From NCBI GenBank assembly GCA_029237825.1, contig JAQZBQ010000002.1, forward strand, positions 1 through 64,000: a DNA stretch of 64,000 bases, written 5' to 3'. Both the position numbers and the translations under genes were made by a program. The notes beneath the pieces were generated by a model. It saw only the letters and a list, made by a program, of their open reading frames with translations. It made no database searches and was not told the DNA's origin. The DNA comes from Bacteroidota bacterium. Its GTDB lineage: Bacteria; Bacteroidota; Bacteroidia; B-17B0; Aurantibacillaceae. Positions 18,206 to 30,190 of this stretch are shown piece after piece (position 1 is the first letter of the stretch; every line of letters begins with the position of its first letter).

Positions 18206-18296
18206 AAATTAATTTCAATAAGAAGTAATATTTATACATTTATGTTTCCAATCTTTTGCAATCACACCTTCACGCAGGTTTAATTTAAGTACGAGT

Positions 18297-18395
18297 CCAG
18301 CGTTAGGGATGCAAGCGGAAATCATTTTGTGAGGTACGAGCAAAATATTGCAGCGTGTCAGCCCGACGGCGCTGCCTCCTGGCGCCGGAACGCCC
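18297..18395 (-). repeat. Two-hairpin dispersed repeat, copy 3 (inverted)
   Basis: Read on the reverse strand it opens GGGCGTTCC, has hairpin I (GGCGC...GCGCC), hairpin II with short arms ATTTTG...CAAAAT, and ends ATTTCCGCTTGCATCCCTAA then CGCTGG. The order of elements matches the other copies, while the stem sequences differ. Confidence 0.75.
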
Positions 18396-19859: not shown

Positions 19860-19906
19860 TTGTTTGTATTCTTTCAAAATGTATCTTTGACTTACTGATA
19901 AACACC
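19860..19906 (+). repeat. Degenerate first CRISPR repeat with intact promoter half
   Basis: Identical to the consensus from repeat position 12 onward, but the first 11 nt are diverged. The TATCTTTG box (19882-19889) is intact and a TTTTG ends at 19862, exactly 19 nt before it, which is the ideal Bacteroidota -33/-7 spacing. No spacer lies to its left, so the pairing half is not needed here. Confidence 0.9.
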
Positions 19907-22860
19907 TCCTTGTATAGCGATAAAATCCGCATCCTGGTTGTGATTTGCTTTCAAAATGTATCTTTGACTTACTGATAAACACCTCTGTCATTTAGCTTTT
20001 CATTGTCGGCTTCGTTGTGATTTGCTTTCAAAATGTATCTTTGACTTACTGATAAACACCTTCATTTCGTCAGCTATAAGGGAGTGCCTGGTTGTGATTT
20101 GCTTTCAAAATGTATCTTTGACTTACTGATAAACACCAGTTTGGAATATTCTAAACTTTGGAATTTTGTTGTGATTTGCTTTCAAAATGTATCTTTGACT
20201 TACTGATAAACACCCTATACCCGGAAAATACCAAAGAACTTGAGGTTGTGATTTGCTTTCAAAATGTATCTTTGACTTACTGATAAACACCGATATTAAA
20301 ATTAATCACTTTATTTTTTAAGTTGTGATTTGCTTTCAAAATGTATCTTTGACTTACTGATAAACACCAATTAAACGATTTGCAATGTGATTGAATCCGT
20401 TGTGATTTGCTTTCAAAATGTATCTTTGACTTACTGATAAACACCTATCCCTACCGAGGGTATCTCGATAGGGGGGTTGTGATTTGCTTTCAAAATGTAT
20501 CTTTGACTTACTGATAAACACCTTTGATAATGACGCTACCGTTTGGGGAGTTGTTGTGATTTGCTTTCAAAATGTATCTTTGACTTACTGATAAACACCA
20601 AGACGTGGTTAACGTTACGTTTTCAATCCGTTGTGATTTGCTTTCAAAATGTATCTTTGACTTACTGATAAACACCATAAAAGGCAATACGGTAAAGGTG
20701 CGGTTAGTTGTGATTTGCTTTCAAAATGTATCTTTGACTTACTGATAAACACCCAGTTTATTGAAATTGCATTAGGGAAACAGGTTGTGATTTGCTTTCA
20801 AAATGTATCTTTGACTTACTGATAAACACCAACAAATAAAAATCACATGAGCACAAAAGCGTTGTGATTTGCTTTCAAAATGTATCTTTGACTTACTGAT
20901 AAACACCCGTTTCCATACAGGGCCGATGGCATGCTCGGTTGTGATTTGCTTTCAAAATGTATCTTTGACTTACTGATAAACACCTCTGCATGCTATTCCG
21001 TAATAAGAGCATTTGTTGTGATTTGCTTTCAAAATGTATCTTTGACTTACTGATAAACACCATTGTAAATGCAGTGATGATCAGGATTAAGTTGTGATTT
21101 GCTTTCAAAATGTATCTTTGACTTACTGATAAACACCTCTCAGAGGAAAAGCATTGCTATGACGCTGTTGTGATTTGCTTTCAAAATGTATCTTTGACTT
21201 ACTGATAAACACCCAGTTAAAACAATTATTAATTTAAATCATTGTTGTGATTTGCTTTCAAAATGTATCTTTGACTTACTGATAAACACCCTGTCATTGC
21301 GCCGCACTTTGGTGTTACTGTTGTGATTTGCTTTCAAAATGTATCTTTGACTTACTGATAAACACCAAGATGAAGAAGAGCTCCGGGACATTAATAGTTG
21401 TGATTTGCTTTCAAAATGTATCTTTGACTTACTGATAAACACCTCCCTTTCGTGTTGATCTCTTGTCCGTTTAGTTGTGATTTGCTTTCAAAATGTATCT
21501 TTGACTTACTGATAAACACCCGGATGAGGACCGGGAACACCGCTGGGTGTGTTGTGATTTGCTTTCAAAATGTATCTTTGACTTACTGATAAACACCGTT
21601 TTCGCGGCTGGCTAAACACAAGATTGGGTTGTGATTTGCTTTCAAAATGTATCTTTGACTTACTGATAAACACCCGTAATAATGCTGGAAGGAGCGGTCC
21701 TTATGTTGTGATTTGCTTTCAAAATGTATCTTTGACTTACTGATAAACACCGCATTTATAATGCTGTTGAATTGCTGTGTTGTTGTGATTTGCTTTCAAA
21801 ATGTATCTTTGACTTACTGATAAACACCAGGGCGTAACTTACCTAAAGACAGTATTCAGTTGTGATTTGCTTTCAAAATGTATCTTTGACTTACTGATAA
21901 ACACCGACGGCACTATATTCTGTTCAATGTATATCGTTGTGATTTGCTTTCAAAATGTATCTTTGACTTACTGATAAACACCGAAACCCCATGTTAATTA
22001 TTGGGGTGAAGAGTTGTGATTTGCTTTCAAAATGTATCTTTGACTTACTGATAAACACCCAGTAGCTACAAATCTATACTTCACTTTCCGTTGTGATTTG
22101 CTTTCAAAATGTATCTTTGACTTACTGATAAACACCGTCATACCTAAACGAGCGTTTTGATATTGAGTTGTGATTTGCTTTCAAAATGTATCTTTGACTT
22201 ACTGATAAACACCTTGTATCGCTTGCGATCTTGGCCCCTGATCGTTGTGATTTGCTTTCAAAATGTATCTTTGACTTACTGATAAACACCTTTAGACAAA
22301 GCTATACAATCAGCACCTGCGTTGTGATTTGCTTTCAAAATGTATCTTTGACTTACTGATAAACACCGCTTCGGATTTTTTGGATAGTATTAACTTGGTT
22401 GTGATTTGCTTTCAAAATGTATCTTTGACTTACTGATAAACACCTGTACGGACAGTCGTTACAGGCACAGCTGTGTTGTGATTTGCTTTCAAAATGTATC
22501 TTTGACTTACTGATAAACACCACATAAAAGCAAGCCTAACAGCCGAACGCTGTTGTGATTTGCTTTCAAAATGTATCTTTGACTTACTGATAAACACCCA
22601 AAGGGACTTGGTTTGTAACCTATCAAGTGTTGTGATTTGCTTTCAAAATGTATCTTTGACTTACTGATAAACACCAAGAAGCCCTATGAATACAGGGATA
22701 AATTGGGTTGTGATTTGCTTTCAAAATGTATCTTTGACTTACTGATAAACACCTATAAACAGTTAGGAGAAAGCGACCTAACAGTTGTGATTTGCTTTCA
22801 AAATGTATCTTTGACTTACTGATAAACACCCGTAATTTTCGCCGTGCCATTCATCGTTAG

Positions 22861-22882
22861 GTTGTGATTTGCTTTCAAAATG
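22861..22882 (+). repeat. Truncated CRISPR repeat (22 nt) with pairing half only
   Basis: Repeat positions 1-22 are present and positions 23-47 are absent, followed by a 29-nt spacer (22883-22911) and then a full repeat at 22912. The missing part contains the whole TATCTTTG box and the expected start site for the following spacer. Confidence 0.95.
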
Positions 22883-23343
22883 AACCACATTTACTCCTCG
22901 TTACTTTTTACGTTGTGATTTGCTTTCAAAATGTATCTTTGACTTACTGATAAACACCAAAGACTGGAAAAGGAAAAAGCGGAATTGCGTTGTGATTTGC
23001 TTTCAAAATGTATCTTTGACTTACTGATAAACACCTTTTCGTGTGGTTGATAGTGCTTAGTTTCTGTTGTGATTTGCTTTCAAAATGTATCTTTGACTTA
23101 CTGATAAACACCATAAGAGCGACACACGGATTAATAGGTAGTGTTGTGATTTGCTTTCAAAATGTATCTTTGACTTACTGATAAACACCAACAATGTTTT
23201 TAATAATACTCCTTCATCAGTTGTGATTTGCTTTCAAAATGTATCTTTGACTTACTGATAAACACCGTTAATCCGTTATTATTAATGTATTCTTTGGTTG
23301 TGATTTGCTTTCAAAATGTATCTTTGACTTACTGATAAACACC

Positions 23344-23359
23344 GGTGTTTTGCGTATAG
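23344..23359 (+). other. 16-nt short CRISPR spacer
   Basis: GGTGTTTTGCGTATAG lies between two perfect full repeats (23297 and 23360), about half the normal spacer length. It is probably too short to direct cleavage. Confidence 0.9.
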
Positions 23360-23713
23360 GTTGTGATTTGCTTTCAAAATGTATCTTTGACTTACTGATA
23401 AACACCGGTTAAGAGAGGCCGTGAGGGTGTAACCGTGTTGTGATTTGCTTTCAAAATGTATCTTTGACTTACTGATAAACACCAAGGACAGCCAATAGCA
23501 AAACCAATCCGTTGTTGTGATTTGCTTTCAAAATGTATCTTTGACTTACTGATAAACACCGAGGCGAGATTAACGGAGCGATGTTCGCTGGTTGTGATTT
23601 GCTTTCAAAATGTATCTTTGACTTACTGATAAACACCGGTGCCGAGGAAAGAATAACCTATAACGCGTTGTGATTTGCTTTCAAAATGTATCTTTGACTT
23701 ACTGATAAACACC

Positions 23714-23881
23714 AGATAGGTCGAAAACCACAACAAAATCAATAGTTTCGGACTGTTTCGTCAATAAGAAAAGTGAGGTTTTATCGAACAATTATCCACC
23801 CAGGCGGTGGATTTTTTGTTTCTATGTTCTTTCTATGCTCCTCGACTTTTTCATAATAGGACAAATACAAAGCGATAATTG
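23714..23881. other. Flank between the array and cas2 (candidate acquisition-end leader)
   Basis: 168 bp without an ORF, AT-rich, next to a perfect terminal repeat and to cas2. The decayed repeat is at the other end of the array, so this flank is the likelier site for new spacers. It also carries a + strand terminator. Confidence 0.45.
23794..23818 (+). terminator. Intrinsic terminator after the CRISPR array
   Basis: ATCCACC, loop CAGGC, GGTGGAT, then a T run: a 7-bp perfect stem with U-tail on the + strand, 80 bp after the last repeat. The reverse strand lacks a T run, so it stops array transcription rather than cas2 transcription. Confidence 0.8.
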
Positions 23882-24250
<369 letters not shown>

Positions 24251-25174
24251 TTACAATTCAGGGTATACTAATTTTCTTTGACTTCCTTCAAAACATTTCA
24301 CAAGGCTCACGGCGGTACGTTGAGTGGCTAGCATCAAGGGACTTTTAGCACCGTCAATTGTAACATCTATTGCGGGAATTTTCAGTAAAATAGCTTTGTG
24401 CTCCTTTCGCATTTCTTCCACAATGCCAAATTCAGTGATCATATCATGCACAACCTGATCCACATAAGGCCGATAGGGTTCCATCAGATCATCCGCAAGA
24501 CAATAGGCATTATAGCGGTTGCGGTGAAATATGCCCAGGGTAGGGAGGAGCCCTGCTCCGACTATGCTTCTTGCCATAGTGCCCCGTAAAATACTGTAGC
24601 CATAGTTTAAAAAATTATTGGGTGCCGGAGGCATTTCATTTTGTACGCCCTGTATCCGTGCAACGCGTTTGAATCCGGGGACATGTTTGATGAATACCGT
24701 TTGCCAGTAATAAGAGGCCGCTGTTGCTTCACAGTTATCTGAATCTCCGCTTTTTACACTTCGGTGCAAAGGAATTAAATAATCTGAATTGAGTTGAAGG
24801 CTGTTTAAAACTCCAGCCTGATTCTTTATTTTTTGAATCACGGTTTGTTGCCACAATTGCTTTTTTAAGGGCTCACTGGCTCCAAGCTGCGAATCATATC
24901 GCTCCTGTTGAATGCTGTTGCCCTCGATAGGCAATAACAGACTTTGTGGCATGTGCCGGTAATCGCAGGTAATCACAGCTACATTATTTTCCTGTAACAA
25001 TTGTAACAAGCCGCTGGTGATGGTAATTTGCGGGTGATCAATGACCATAATTCCTATATCTTCCACGGGTACCGTGGCGGTTTTGGTTTCACCTTCCACA
25101 GTTTCTATGCTCAACTGTTGATCTTTCAAGCGGAGATAGCCAGGATTACCGAAATAGAGAGTGCGTTTAATCAT
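24251..25174 (-). CDS. cas1: CRISPR-associated integrase Cas1
   Basis: 307 aa, full length for type II Cas1, the metal-dependent integrase that inserts prespacers into the array. Catalytic residues are visible: Glu149 (NCEATAASYYW), His217 (GIFHRNRYNAY) and the acidic DDLMEP site at 228-232. The N-terminal beta domain starts MIKRTLYFGNPGYLRL, as expected. The start overlaps the cas9 stop by 4 nt (ATGA), so the two are translationally coupled. Base composition is visibly less AT-rich than that of cas9, which hints at different histories for the adaptation and effector parts. Confidence 0.98.
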   Translation of the reverse strand: MIKRTLYFGNPGYLRLKDQQLSIETVEGETKTATVPVEDIGIMVIDHPQITITSGLLQLLQENNVAVITCDYRHMPQSLLLPIEGNSIQQERYDSQLGASEPLKKQLWQQTVIQKIKNQAGVLNSLQLNSDYLIPLHRSVKSGDSDNCEATAASYYWQTVFIKHVPGFKRVARIQGVQNEMPPAPNNFLNYGYSILRGTMARSIVGAGLLPTLGIFHRNRYNAYCLADDLMEPYRPYVDQVVHDMITEFGIVEEMRKEHKAILLKIPAIDVTIDGAKSPLMLATQRTAVSLVKCFEGSQRKLVYPEL

Positions 25175-28100
25175 TTTAGAACAGTTGAAATATTACCTAA
25201 TCTATCAGTTTTTATTTTCCAACAAATATCTTTTATCATTTCTCCATTTATTCCACGTTCCATTTTGTTTAACGCGGAATATTCAACTTTATTTACGATA
25301 GTATTTGCAACCTCATTTTTTATAAAAAATGCTTGTGTACCAGTAAAGCTTACAGTTTTATAAATTCTATTAGTTTGTTCTTTAGATAATTTTTTAATGT
25401 CAAATAAGTTGGGATTTTCAAATTCTTCTTTTGTTGGCACGTATACTAAATCATTTGGTGATAAATGAAATAATAAGCTATCTCCATTTTCATTTTTGTT
25501 TGGTACTGAACAAAATTCAGGTTTAATGTTTTGTAAAGCGCCTTGTTTTTGGTTTTCAATTACAATGTTTAAAGGAATAGTTTCATAGTTGCGCTTTCCT
25601 TTTTCGTCTTTGTAAATGGCAAAAAACAAGTTGGTTCCTTTGGCTGCTTCCACAAATTTGGCTTTTTTGTTGCCAGTAGTACCTACATTAAATTTATTGC
25701 CTCTTGCTTCGTAAGTTCTTACTTTGTGTATTGGATGATGAAACTTGCCATTATTTAATGCAATTATATTTTTGTTTAAATCATCAATGCCATCTGGTGA
25801 AAATGCCAACTCAGGATGTTCCATTATCTTACCGCCATTAGTTTCATTATATTTTTCAAGATGTTTCAAAAGTATTTTTTGAATCCCAGTATCTGTGACA
25901 TTTTCTTTAATTACTTTTGATGTAAAGGATTCATCTAATTTTGTGCGCGAGGCTACATTGGCATTATCAAAATAATATAGATCAATTTTTGTAACATCTT
26001 TATCATTCCATTTGTTGTCTAAATTTTTAAAATAGGCTTGAATTTTCTTTTTGTCGTGCTTTTCTTTAATAAACTGATTGATTTTTTTGCGTAAGGGCCT
26101 ATCTACTATCATATCAGGGTTATCAATGGCATTTAGTAAAGATGCTCCGGTTTTTATTTTTTTTAAAGATACATTACCCGAAACCGTTTCTTTATGCATT
26201 GGTTTTCTAATTGCCCAATTACTGCCCTCCTGTTTTACAACTTCTTTCTTTAATACTCCATTACCATCTGGAACCCATTTTTGATAATAATTTACAGTTT
26301 TATTAATTACCCTTAAGTTTTGTTTAAAACTGACAACTGTATTTTCTAGTGATTCTTTTGCTTGTATGGTAAAGTTATTCCAAGGTTTATGGAACTCCTT
26401 AGCAACGTTTATTTTTTTCTTTTCTCCGGTTTTTTTATCTGTAATTTCAATTTGCTCATGCCTTCTTAATTTTTTCTGTAAATCGTAACGTATTGTATCT
26501 GATTTAGCATACTGGTTATTTAAGTAGTTAATGTGGTTTTTACTTGCGCAGGCAATCACTAAAGCATCTAACGCATGATGACGATGATCGATACGTTTTT
26601 TGTTAAATCCTTTTTGAAGTTCTAATGGCACTTGTGTTTGAAAAACACGTTTACCATTTTTATTAGTCCATTCTCCAAAACTTGTACTCTTGGTCAATTC
26701 ATTCAATCTTTCAAAACGAGGTGAAACAATATCATTCCATACATCATTTAAGCCCCAATCTTGTTTTAATACACTTGTAACATTGCCATTACTAGAAATA
26801 ACATGCTTTGAGGTGCTTTCCTGCTCATCATCTTCCCTTACCAAACTAGATAATAGATTTTTAACAACCTTACTGATGTATCGACTATCGTTTAGCTGAC
26901 GTTGAATAAATGATTCAGGGATTTCTTCCATCATCAATTTATTTAATTTGCTTCTATTTTTTGAATAATTTCGTTTTACAAATTCTTCATATTCTTTTTC
27001 TTCAAAAATAGTAACTACTTTTCCAAAAGGTAACTCAATTTTTTTTCCGTGATTGTCTCTAATATATTTATACGCTGTACTTTTATCTTTGTCTTTATTG
27101 ACTTCCGCTTCACAAATCACTTTATTACTTAATGAATTATCAAAGTATCGTGTTTGAGGTATAACATGCTCTATTTCATAAGCAGTAGTAAATAGTTTAT
27201 TTAATGGAATTATTTCGCCTGTATAAGGAGACCTGTATTTTTGTTCCAGCCATAATTTATATTTATTAAGTTCAGATCTTGTTGGTTGCCCAGATTTTGT
27301 AATTTTTAAAATTTCTTCATCAATTGTAATATCTGAATTAATTACTCCATCTTCATATATTTTTAGTATTTCTTGTTGGCTAGGAGAGAAAGGTCTAATG
27401 TTTTCGTAAGTAGAATCATTTAAAAACTCTGATAATAACGCTTTTATTCTAAGGTTAGTATTTTCATTCGCACTCATGTTATTAGCCATATCCTTGCGTT
27501 TATCCGCCGGATTTTTCATTTCTCTACCTAATTCAATATGTATTTCATTGAGGAAATTGGACTCGCCATTACCATAAGTTTTCCATATATCTTTTACAAC
27601 TCTGAGAGTTTCGGTAATTACTTGCTCCACGATTGGATTTCGTATAGAATGTTGTTTGAATTCTTTTAGAAAATTTTCTATGTCTTCTGGTTTTTTCCAT
27701 TGCATAGCATTAGCATCTTCTGAATGTCTATCATAAACAATGTAGGAAGTAAGCCATTGTGGCAATGATTTAAAATCATTGATTGTATTTAAACGAATGG
27801 CCTTATCACGTACCCTATCTCTTATTTTATTATCAACTTCGCCATTAATGATTTTCTCTATTCTGTTTTTTGTTTGTGGATGAATTGCCTCCTCTTGCCA
27901 ATATTTTCCTCTTCTCATTAATGGAAGAAGTTTTTTTATTGCTTTTTCTGAATATGCTCCGTAGTCTTTATCAAATGGTTTAATTTTTTTGAAGATATCG
28001 GAAAAATCTTCACTCAACTGATTTTTTAACGCAAATGACTTAAGAGCGTTCTCAATTTCTATTTTATCCTTAACTGAATAAAGGATGTGCCACAACTCTA

Positions 28101-29745
28101 GTTCTTTTACTTTAGTCAAAAAATTATCTGGCACATGTTTAACTTTTAACAATCGATTTACAATTGTATTATGTGTTTCATTGCAAGGATAAGTTTTATC
28201 TTCTACGTAGTTCCATCTATAGTTTTCGGTATTCTTTTTTAAGTTAAATGCAGAATATTTCAAAAATGCTTTTTGATCAATCTCTTTCCGTTCATTTAAC
28301 CAATCAAAAAGATTAGTGTAATCTTCGTCGGATTTTAAAAATTCGGATGTTACATTAACATCAGTATGTATTTTTGCATCAATTGTTTTTTCTTTTTGAT
28401 AGATTTTAAGGTTTTGAATGAATTGCCATAATCTAAATTCCTGAAATAATGGATGAGATTTTGATATACATTTTATAGTTTGTGTTTCTTTTTTACCGTC
28501 CTTTAAATATGTTCTTTGCTCAAAAGGACAATCACTAATGAGAGATTTTTTGCTTTTTAACGGGCGTTGGTAAAATAGAATGTCATTAATAAATAGATGA
28601 GCAAAATTTTTCTCTTTGATGTTTTCTCTGTGTGATACGTTGTTTTCGTATAACTCTTCAATACACGCATTATAAAGTTTTCTGTCTTTTAATTCAGTAT
28701 GTTCCTGTGCTTGTTTTTCCAGTATTTGCTTTAATTCATCTTTATAAAATTTACGTTCTATGGTACGGATTAATTTTCCTTTAATTTTTTGATTGGGATT
28801 TTGAAGTAAGGTGTCATAAATGTACGCTCCTACTGTTTTATTAGAATTATTTATAAACTGTTCGGTTTTTTGTTTAATCGCTATCCAATCTTTTTCTGAA
28901 TCAACAGCTTTAAATGTTAGTTTTATTTCTCCATTTTTTGAAATAGTTTTTGTAACAATAAATTCTTTCGTTTTACCTATCCAATCTTCTATTTTAACTA
29001 CTTGTCTGTCATATTTCCAGCCATTTTCAAAATACACATCGTGAAGCTTGTCTTTTTTTCCTTTAATTGTTTCCCCGCTATCAACAACACTTTTTACTTT
29101 TAAAATTTCGAATGATTGTTCTTTATTATCTTCAATGTCGTCTTCTTCGCCTCTTAACTGGTAATAACCACGTTTTTGATTAAAATGCAATAATAACCAA
29201 GCTAGCTCTTCTTTTTCTATTTTGGCAGTTAAAGCTTTTTTACGTAAATAATATATTGTCCAATCATATGGTACTTTCTTTTTATTTAATAATAAATTTG
29301 CTTGATGCACTTTGAAATCTTCAAGCATTTCTTCGAACGATTTTTTGAATATAAATTCGTACTGTGTTCTATTATCAGATACTTTTTCTTTGTATGCTAG
29401 TTTTGGTTCGCTATTGGGCAAAAATTGTCCTAATCTTTTTTCAAAATCAATTTGTTCAGTGTAATGTTTAGGTAAAAATCCTAAAACATTTAAAGTTCTG
29501 TGTAATCGTTCTCTTCGTAATAAATTTCTTTCAAGAAGCCTTCTAATTCCTCTATATCCTGTTCTTGAAGCTGTTTGAGAAATTGATGCCCCTTTGTTAA
29601 AATCACTTATTATTTCCTGCGACATAGGAATGATTCTGCTACCAAGTCCAAGTATCTCACCATTTTTAGTTTCGAAATCTTGATTTATAAGAGACCAGCC
29701 GATCGAATTAGTTCCTAAATCCAATCCTAAAATTTTTTTTGTCAT
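25171..29745 (-). CDS. cas9: CRISPR-associated endonuclease Cas9, type II-C, large form
   Basis: 1524 aa, at the long end for II-C but, as far as I recall, in the range of Bacteroidota Cas9s; it cleaves DNA guided by crRNA:tracrRNA. All nuclease motifs are intact: RuvC-I Asp9 (GLDLGTNSIGW), arginine-rich bridge helix (RGIRRLLERNLLRRERL, about 60-80), RuvC-II Glu738 (IELGRE), HNH His860 (YEIEHVIPQTRYFDN), RuvC-III His1057 and Asp1060 (RHHALDA). The recognition lobe spans about 90-720 and the C-terminal PAM-interacting part about 1090-1524. The PAM cannot be read off. The gene is strongly AT-rich and lysine-rich compared with the flanking genes. It heads cas9-cas1-cas2, with the tracrRNA gene divergent in its leader. 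Confidence 0.98.
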   Translation of the reverse strand: MTKKILGLDLGTNSIGWSLINQDFETKNGEILGLGSRIIPMSQEIISDFNKGASISQTASRTGYRGIRRLLERNLLRRERLHRTLNVLGFLPKHYTEQIDFEKRLGQFLPNSEPKLAYKEKVSDNRTQYEFIFKKSFEEMLEDFKVHQANLLLNKKKVPYDWTIYYLRKKALTAKIEKEELAWLLLHFNQKRGYYQLRGEEDDIEDNKEQSFEILKVKSVVDSGETIKGKKDKLHDVYFENGWKYDRQVVKIEDWIGKTKEFIVTKTISKNGEIKLTFKAVDSEKDWIAIKQKTEQFINNSNKTVGAYIYDTLLQNPNQKIKGKLIRTIERKFYKDELKQILEKQAQEHTELKDRKLYNACIEELYENNVSHRENIKEKNFAHLFINDILFYQRPLKSKKSLISDCPFEQRTYLKDGKKETQTIKCISKSHPLFQEFRLWQFIQNLKIYQKEKTIDAKIHTDVNVTSEFLKSDEDYTNLFDWLNERKEIDQKAFLKYSAFNLKKNTENYRWNYVEDKTYPCNETHNTIVNRLLKVKHVPDNFLTKVKELELWHILYSVKDKIEIENALKSFALKNQLSEDFSDIFKKIKPFDKDYGAYSEKAIKKLLPLMRRGKYWQEEAIHPQTKNRIEKIINGEVDNKIRDRVRDKAIRLNTINDFKSLPQWLTSYIVYDRHSEDANAMQWKKPEDIENFLKEFKQHSIRNPIVEQVITETLRVVKDIWKTYGNGESNFLNEIHIELGREMKNPADKRKDMANNMSANENTNLRIKALLSEFLNDSTYENIRPFSPSQQEILKIYEDGVINSDITIDEEILKITKSGQPTRSELNKYKLWLEQKYRSPYTGEIIPLNKLFTTAYEIEHVIPQTRYFDNSLSNKVICEAEVNKDKDKSTAYKYIRDNHGKKIELPFGKVVTIFEEKEYEEFVKRNYSKNRSKLNKLMMEEIPESFIQRQLNDSRYISKVVKNLLSSLVREDDEQESTSKHVISSNGNVTSVLKQDWGLNDVWNDIVSPRFERLNELTKSTSFGEWTNKNGKRVFQTQVPLELQKGFNKKRIDHRHHALDALVIACASKNHINYLNNQYAKSDTIRYDLQKKLRRHEQIEITDKKTGEKKKINVAKEFHKPWNNFTIQAKESLENTVVSFKQNLRVINKTVNYYQKWVPDGNGVLKKEVVKQEGSNWAIRKPMHKETVSGNVSLKKIKTGASLLNAIDNPDMIVDRPLRKKINQFIKEKHDKKKIQAYFKNLDNKWNDKDVTKIDLYYFDNANVASRTKLDESFTSKVIKENVTDTGIQKILLKHLEKYNETNGGKIMEHPELAFSPDGIDDLNKNIIALNNGKFHHPIHKVRTYEARGNKFNVGTTGNKKAKFVEAAKGTNLFFAIYKDEKGKRNYETIPLNIVIENQKQGALQNIKPEFCSVPNKNENGDSLLFHLSPNDLVYVPTKEEFENPNLFDIKKLSKEQTNRIYKTVSFTGTQAFFIKNEVANTIVNKVEYSALNKMERGINGEMIKDICWKIKTDRLGNISTVLK

Positions 29746-29771: not shown

Positions 29772-29849
29772 TACATTTTGAAAGCAAATCACAATAAGGA
29801 TTATTCCGTTGTGAAAACATCCAAAGCGGGGAGCAATCCTCGCTTTTTT
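29772..29849 (+). ncRNA. tracrRNA
   Basis: About 78 nt. The anti-repeat TACATTTTGAAAGCAAATCA, continuing CAA, is perfectly complementary to repeat positions 2-24. It is followed by the core TAAGGATTATTCCGTTGTG with a small stem-loop (AAGGATTATTCC-type nexus), a single-stranded AAAACATC, and a terminal hairpin AAGCGGGGA-GCAA-TCCTCGCTT with a T run, which serves as the 3' hairpin and terminator. This layout matches II-C tracrRNAs. It is divergent from cas9 and faces away from the array, 6 kb from it. Confidence 0.93.
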
Positions 29850-29857
29850 CTTTTAAT

Positions 29858-29865: not shown

Positions 29866-30063
29866 TTTGAATTTTTTAATTCCGGAAATTATTATTGGGT
29901 ATTTTAATTTCCCGTAAACACTTAAATATGAGATTACTTCATAAGGAACACTGTTTATGACAACTGAAGTTTCTCTTTTCGACATAACGCCCAACCTTTT
30001 ATCCTCCTTTTGTTTTCCGTTACTGTAGAGATTTCGAAGGGTTAATTTTTTAATTGATCCAAG

Positions 30064-30190
30064 CCCCGCGTTAAGGATTGGAACGGAAAGCCCACAGCTG
30101 AGAGGAACGACCAGCGAGGACTTGGAGTGTAAAGCCTGACCCGACGAAGGAGGGTAACGCCCTGGCAGTCCCCAGCCGGCGGAAGCACCC
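30064..30190 (-). repeat. Two-hairpin dispersed repeat, copy 4 (inverted)
   Basis: On the reverse strand the core GGGCGTTACCCTCCTTCGTC...GGGCTTTCCGTTCCAATCCT and the end TAACGCGGGG are very close to copy 5 at 33202. It has an extra 5' GC-rich stem (CCGCCGGCTGGGG). It lies between the CRISPR-Cas locus and recJ, and with the preceding bases (29850-30063, no gene recognised) fills that interval. Confidence 0.75.

What the first reader, a model, noticed from the sequence alone, without database searches (positions are those of the whole stretch)
19860..23713. Every CRISPR repeat appears to carry its own Bacteroidota promoter
Repeat positions 23-30 read TATCTTTG, an exact TAnnTTTG -7 box, and GTTG at positions 1-4 lies 18 nt upstream, near the ideal spacing. 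Initiation would fall in the last 8-14 nt of the repeat, so each spacer could be transcribed from its own start, without needing long pre-crRNA or 5' processing. Promoters inside repeats are established for Neisseria and Campylobacter II-C arrays, using a different sigma box. Here the idea is transferred to the Bacteroidota sigma consensus.
Basis: partly seen in the sequence, partly recalled or inferred. Interest (0 to 1): 0.85.

Follow-up and report, generated by a model that had tools for sequence, protein, structure and literature searches.

The report
Promoters inside Bacteroidota CRISPR repeats
In this Cas9 CRISPR array nearly every repeat carries the start signal that this group of bacteria uses for ordinary genes, so each stored virus memory is probably transcribed by its own repeat towards a stop signal at the far end; the principle is known from Campylobacter and Neisseria and had been guessed for two Flavobacterium species, but the signal itself and its spread across the phylum had not, as far as I found, been shown.

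Summary
The array (19860-23713, + strand) has 49 identical full repeats with GTTG-18 nt-TATCTTTG, plus a degenerate first repeat that keeps the box. A truncated repeat (22861-22882) lacks it, so "every" is 50 of 51. The tracrRNA anti-repeat confirms that the + strand is the crRNA strand. Among 91 distinct Bacteroidota II-C repeats, 51 carry an exact TAnnTTTG (3.2 expected) and none carries it on the opposite strand. TAnnTTTG is the commonest spaced hexamer in their 3' halves and, independently, just upstream of their tracrRNAs. TracrRNA pairing does not reach it. Degenerate first repeats lose the pairing half but keep the box. No external promoter is enriched at either array end. A strand-biased intrinsic terminator about 80 nt beyond the last repeat marks where array transcription stops. 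A repeat-borne sigma-ABfr-type promoter is therefore the best explanation. Corrections: the predicted start lies 13 nt before the spacer, so "no 5' processing" is unsupported; GTTG is common to CRISPR repeats and weak evidence. Prior art: repeat promoters proven in C. jejuni and proposed, via TTG only, for F. columnare and F. psychrophilum. No RNA data were available. New variant of a known kind.

The parts
19860..23713 (+). CRISPR array: degenerate first repeat, 49 identical 47-nt repeats, one truncated repeat, spacers mostly 30 nt
19860..19906 (+). degenerate first (leader-distal) repeat: positions 1-11 changed, 12-47 intact; box TATCTTTG at 19882-19889, TTTTG 19 nt upstream
19959..19966 (+). 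-7 box TATCTTTG of the first full repeat (19937-19983); same place (repeat positions 23-30) in all 49 full repeats; predicted start at repeat position 35
   Evidence: box placement -12..-5 from PMC9723704
22861..22882 (+). truncated repeat (positions 1-22 only): keeps the tracrRNA-pairing half, lacks the -7 box; natural promoter loss for the spacer at 22883-22911
23667..23713 (+). last repeat, next to the leader; its promoter would read into the leader
23794..23817 (+). intrinsic terminator ATCCACCCAGGCGGTGGAT-TTTTT reading on the crRNA strand, between leader and cas2
23882..24226 (-). cas2 (TIGR01573)
24251..25174 (-). cas1, type II (TIGR03639)
25171..29745 (-). cas9 (TIGR01865), 1524 aa
29761..29768 (+). 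predicted tracrRNA -7 box TAATATTG (5 of 6 specified positions) with TTTG at 29738-29741, 19 nt spacing; predicted start 29773
29773..29850 (+). tracrRNA: anti-repeat complementary to about repeat positions 2-24, hairpin, terminator

Best explanation
The array is a type II-C CRISPR array in which the repeat is also a promoter for the Bacteroidota housekeeping sigma factor (sigma-ABfr/sigma-A type). Positions 1-17 of the repeat pair with tracrRNA. Positions 23-30 (TATCTTTG) are the -7 box, and TTG at 2-4 sits where a -33 element would. Each repeat is predicted to start transcription at its position 35, run through the next spacer and into the next repeat, and be cut there by tracrRNA and RNase III. 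Transcription runs towards the leader and stops at an intrinsic terminator about 80-100 nt past the last repeat. Because new spacers enter at the downstream end, a promoter in each repeat expresses new and old spacers without relying on one distant start. The first repeat has lost its pairing half but keeps its promoter half for the oldest spacer. Shown by sequence: box, conservation, strand, terminator, anti-repeat. Inferred: sigma use, start site, processing. The 13-nt repeat tag and full spacer at the 5' end imply trimming or tolerance of a longer 5' end.
For: Exact TAnnTTTG in 51 of 91 distinct repeats (shuffles 3.2 +- 1.7); a box matching at least 5 of 6 specified bases starts at repeat position 22-28 in 78 of 91 (8.0 +- 2.6); opposite strand 0 of 91. 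The motif ranks first among spaced hexamers of the 3' halves (50 of 91) and, separately, of the 45 nt upstream of the anti-repeat (46 of 77; next motif 22), with a focus 17-19 nt before the anti-repeat core. tracrRNA complementarity falls to about 0.2 at positions 28-30, so pairing does not explain the box. First repeats: substitutions 295/748 in positions 1-17, 1/262 at the six specified box positions, 4/88 at the two n positions, 15/682 in the tail; L061 has TAAATTTG for TATCTTTG. The box is enriched upstream of genes in the organism's own contig, 53 against 26.8 +- 3.8 shuffled and 29 antisense. No enrichment upstream of arrays or in leaders on either strand. Terminator on the crRNA strand within 200 nt after the last repeat in 55 of 91 (1.0 expected), 27 on that strand only against 8 on the other only. 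Published: an IS-split F. psychrophilum array is transcribed in both parts (PMC10309648); F. columnare reads run towards the leader, eight reads only (PMC8092290).
Against: No RNA data for this organism. The repeats share ancestry: at 80% identity of the 3' part, 27 of 56 cluster representatives have the exact box. Some repeats lack it (Pedobacter L068, Mucilaginibacter L050, L131, L168). Terminal repeats do not clearly keep the -33 TTG. Box against tail in terminal repeats is not significant alone (p = 0.086), and outer-half decay could arise without selection if deletions by recombination keep refreshing the inner half (inference). Substitutions inside arrays are too few to test. The Riemerella authors found no promoter in their repeat, though they do not appear to have searched for this motif (PMC5006608).
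Confidence: 0.85

Rival explanations
1. The box is conserved for another DNA-level reason, such as recognition of the repeat interior by Cas1-Cas2 (a ruler or anchor motif), and transcription comes from outside.
For: The repeat is the integration site, and internal anchor motifs are known in other CRISPR types (own knowledge). Internal repeat variants are too few to exclude it.
Against: The same motif is the top motif upstream of tracrRNAs, where no integration occurs. It matches the sigma consensus including relaxed n positions, and is kept in degenerate first repeats that no longer take spacers. No external promoter is enriched.
Confidence: 0.08
2. A conventional long pre-crRNA from one promoter upstream of the array (left end) or in the leader (right end), with the repeat box coincidental or inherited.
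For: The repeats share ancestry, which inflates counts. The Riemerella authors predicted leader promoters (PMC5006608).
Against: TAnnTTTG is not enriched in 100-200 nt upstream of arrays or in leaders on either strand. A leader promoter would make the antisense strand relative to the tracrRNA. The terminator at the leader reads the other way.
Confidence: 0.05
3. The box is conserved because it pairs with tracrRNA or forms an RNA structure needed for processing.
For: In the window the anti-repeat reaches the first two bases of the box.
Against: Complementarity falls towards chance beyond about position 20, 0.17-0.22 at positions 28-30 across 77 loci. The single repeat folds no better than shuffles (z = +1.17).
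Confidence: 0.02

Closest known systems
Campylobacter jejuni type II-C array (Dugar 2013, PMC3656092)
   Same: A promoter box in the 3' part of each repeat; transcription towards the leader; RNase III and tracrRNA cut the 3' side; three cas genes
   Different: Extended sigma-70 -10 box (GGTAAAAT) at the repeat end with the start at spacer position 5; here TAnnTTTG at positions 23-30 and a predicted start 13 nt before the spacer
Neisseria meningitidis type II-C (Zhang 2013, known to me here only through citing papers)
   Same: Functional promoter in each repeat; RNase III processing dispensable according to PMC5006608
   Different: A different sigma box; primary paper not read here
Flavobacterium columnare II-C, 36-bp repeats (Hoikkala 2021, PMC8092290)
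   Same: Repeat promoter proposed (TTG 33 bp upstream of each spacer); reads towards the leader
   Different: Only TTG named; no -7 box; only eight reads; 36-nt repeat
Flavobacterium psychrophilum CN46 II-C, 46-bp repeats (PMC10309648)
   Same: Repeat promoter proposed; both halves of an IS-split array transcribed
   Different: TTG placed 35 bp upstream of the spacer, which I infer is the TTG at repeat positions 9-11; TAnnTTTG named for cas9 only
II-C extraneous-crRNA survey (Feussner 2025, PMC12080349)
   Same: First repeats mutate mostly in the first 15 nt; promoter retention suggested as a reason
   Different: Promoters in II-C repeats taken as given from Campylobacter; terminators examined upstream of the array, none reported at the leader end in the parts I read; Bacteroidota not named in the text

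Membership tests
Type II-C CRISPR-Cas | cas9, cas1 (type II) and cas2 as the only cas genes | tested here: met
   TIGR01865, TIGR03639, TIGR01573 hits; no further ORF between array and cas9; csn2 and cas4 not searched for in the wider flank
Type II-C CRISPR-Cas | tracrRNA with anti-repeat near cas9 | tested here: met
   anti-repeat, hairpin and terminator at about 29773-29850
Type II-C CRISPR-Cas | array transcribed towards the leader, degenerate repeat at the 5' end | tested here: met
   crRNA strand from the anti-repeat; degenerate first repeat; terminator past the last repeat; transcription itself not measured
Sigma-ABfr-type promoter | -7 box TAnnTTTG | tested here: met
   exact in 50 places of the array; consensus enriched in the same contig
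Sigma-ABfr-type promoter | -33 element (TTTG/TTG) at suitable spacing | tested here: inconclusive
   GTTG at 18 nt in the consensus, but general to CRISPR repeats and not clearly kept in terminal repeats
Sigma-ABfr-type promoter | mapped 5'-triphosphate start | not testable with these tools
   no RNA data held
Repeat-borne promoter of the C. jejuni kind | start inside the spacer so that no 5' processing is needed | tested here: inconclusive
   predicted start 13 nt before the spacer; about 2 nt before it in 36-nt repeats (L116, L149, L162); true start not measured

The most novel reading that the evidence does not exclude
Across Bacteroidota, II-C arrays are strings of one-spacer transcription units, each driven by a sigma-ABfr-type promoter in its repeat and read towards the leader, whose far side is an intrinsic terminator. 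The 'leader' is thus the transcription trailer, and the poly(A)/poly(T) leader motifs previously guessed to be integration signals (PMC8092290) may in part be terminators. The 46-48-nt repeats, about 11 nt longer than the 36-nt ones, would put the start inside the repeat and leave a 5' repeat tag on primary crRNAs.
Probability: 0.65. Interest if true: 0.62.

Novelty: new variant of a known kind. Interest (0 to 1): 0.55.

Why it matters
It shows the same solution, a promoter inside each repeat, written in a different sigma language in another phylum, which makes it look like a general requirement of II-C arrays that grow at their downstream end. It identifies the -7 element that two Flavobacterium studies did not name. 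It gives an exact, cheap test (starts at repeat position 35) and a sequence rule for predicting which Bacteroidota spacers are expressed. It also suggests that part of the Bacteroidota II-C leader is a terminator, which bears on work on spacer integration and on building crRNA arrays for these bacteria.

Tried and rejected
Type I-C arrays of Bacteroidota as a control: 0 of 13 repeats carry the box, but they are GC-rich and not composition-matched. Substitutions inside arrays as a selection test: 29 of 2134 repeats affected, uninformative, and box positions not depleted. Keeping of -33 TTG in terminal repeats: not clear. Rfam gave only sub-threshold CRISPR-DR matches and no tracrRNA. No paper with mapped starts in a Bacteroidota II-C array was found; the F. 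psychrophilum start-site paper does not mention CRISPR, and B. thetaiotaomicron has no array.

Full report
WHAT IS THERE. The array at 19860-23713 consists of 49 identical 47-nt repeats, one degenerate first repeat and one repeat truncated after position 22. To its right, on the - strand, lie cas2, cas1 and cas9. Upstream of cas9, on the + strand, is a tracrRNA gene whose anti-repeat (about 29773-29795) is complementary to repeat positions 2-24 and is followed by a hairpin and a terminator. The crRNA strand is therefore +, and the array is read from the degenerate repeat towards cas2, as in type II-C.

THE OBSERVATION. TATCTTTG at 23-30 and GTTG at 1-4, 18 nt apart, are exact in all 49 full repeats. 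The first repeat has lost positions 1-11 but keeps the box and has TTTTG 19 nt upstream of it. The truncated repeat (22861-22882) has no box. TTG-N17-19-TAnnTTTG occurs 50 times in the array and 39 times in the rest of 400 kb of the same contig, both strands together. In that contig TAnnTTTG is enriched upstream of genes (53 against 26.8 +- 3.8 in shuffles and 29 antisense), so the consensus is in use in this organism.

CONSERVATION. From 80 named loci and 60 stretches of unnamed relatives I obtained 96 arrays, 91 distinct repeats of 35 nt or more. Exact TAnnTTTG: 51 (shuffles 3.2 +- 1.7). At least 5 of 6 specified bases starting at positions 22-28: 78 (shuffles 8.0 +- 2.6). Opposite strand: 0. 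In an unguided ranking TAnnTTTG is the most frequent spaced hexamer of the 3' halves (50 of 91) and, independently, of the 45 nt upstream of the tracrRNA anti-repeat (46 of 77; next motif 22), where it clusters 17-19 nt from the anti-repeat core, as expected of a promoter. Complementarity between repeat and tracrRNA fades beyond about position 20 and is 0.17-0.22 at positions 28-30, so pairing does not conserve the box. Shared ancestry inflates these counts: after clustering 3' parts at 80%, 27 of 56 representatives have the exact box. Exceptions exist, for example Pedobacter (L068) and Mucilaginibacter (L050). Three 36-nt repeats have TAnnTTAG at positions 23-30. The loci were found by similarity to this Cas9, so they sample one broad Cas9 group.

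FIRST REPEATS. In 44 arrays with a changed first repeat, substitutions hit 39% of positions 1-17, 9.6% of the stretch before the box, 0.4% (1 of 262) of the six specified box positions, 4.5% (4 of 88) of the two n positions and 2.2% of the tail. Specified against n positions gives p = 0.015; box against tail p = 0.086. In L061 the box changed from TATCTTTG to TAAATTTG, only at n positions. That mutations fall in the first 15 nt of II-C first repeats, and that promoter retention might explain it, was already published (PMC12080349). A neutral alternative is that recombination between repeats keeps replacing the inner half. The -33 TTG is not clearly retained (8 of 30 against 3.6 +- 1.5).

ENDS OF THE ARRAY. 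Neither the 100-200 nt upstream of arrays nor the leaders are enriched in TAnnTTTG on either strand. Within 200 nt after the last repeat, 55 of 91 arrays have an intrinsic terminator on the crRNA strand (1.0 expected), mostly starting 70-89 nt after the repeat; 27 have it on that strand only and 8 on the opposite strand only. In the window it is 23794-23817. Upstream of arrays only 4 of 63 have one on the crRNA strand. This supports transcription leaving the array through the leader. Earlier papers noted leader poly(A)/poly(T) tracts or a palindrome without calling them terminators in the parts I read (PMC8092290; PMC5006608).

MECHANISM. In F. psychrophilum the box lies at -12..-5 (PMC9723704). 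Applied here, the start is position 35 (A), TTG is at -33..-31, and the primary transcript is 13 nt of repeat, the 30-nt spacer and the next repeat. In C. jejuni the start is at spacer position 5 and only one RNase III cut is needed (PMC3656092). Here 5' trimming, or tolerance of a long 5' end, is implied; a Flavobacterium II-C Cas9 worked in vitro with 22-30-nt spacers, best 24-26 (PMC12609912). The claim that no 5' processing is needed is therefore not supported.

NOVELTY. Repeat-borne promoters are established for II-C in Campylobacter and Neisseria and were proposed for two Flavobacterium species from a TTG element alone. In F. psychrophilum TAnnTTTG was named for cas9, not for the repeat. 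In the open literature I could search I found no statement of the -7 box inside Bacteroidota II-C repeats, its conservation, or the leader terminator; some papers that may bear on it (for example Zhang 2013 and Chylinski 2014) were not held and could not be read. I file it as a new variant of a known kind.

Noticed in passing
window 23794-23817; 55 of 91 relatives: Intrinsic terminator on the crRNA strand about 80 nt beyond the last repeat, inside or at the edge of the 'leader'; hairpin sequences differ between genomes.
   Followed up: yes
window 22861-22911: Repeat truncated after position 22, losing the -7 box, followed by a 29-nt spacer: a natural test of promoter need.
   Followed up: partly
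window 23344-23359: A spacer of only 16 nt between two full repeats.
   Followed up: no
L116, L149, L162: 36-nt II-C repeats with TAnnTTAG at positions 23-30, about 11 nt shorter at the 3' end than the 46-48-nt repeats; predicted start would be near the spacer edge.
   Followed up: partly
L050, L068 (Mucilaginibacter, Pedobacter): II-C repeats without TAnnTTTG (they have ATTCTTTG from position 17 or 18); their transcription may use another signal.
   Followed up: no
L101, L106: Two or three degenerate repeats in a row at the leader-distal end.
   Followed up: no
window 30058-30145 and 18290-18372: Sub-threshold Rfam matches to Flavo-1 RNA (32.2 and 23.8 bits, gathering 42).
   Followed up: no
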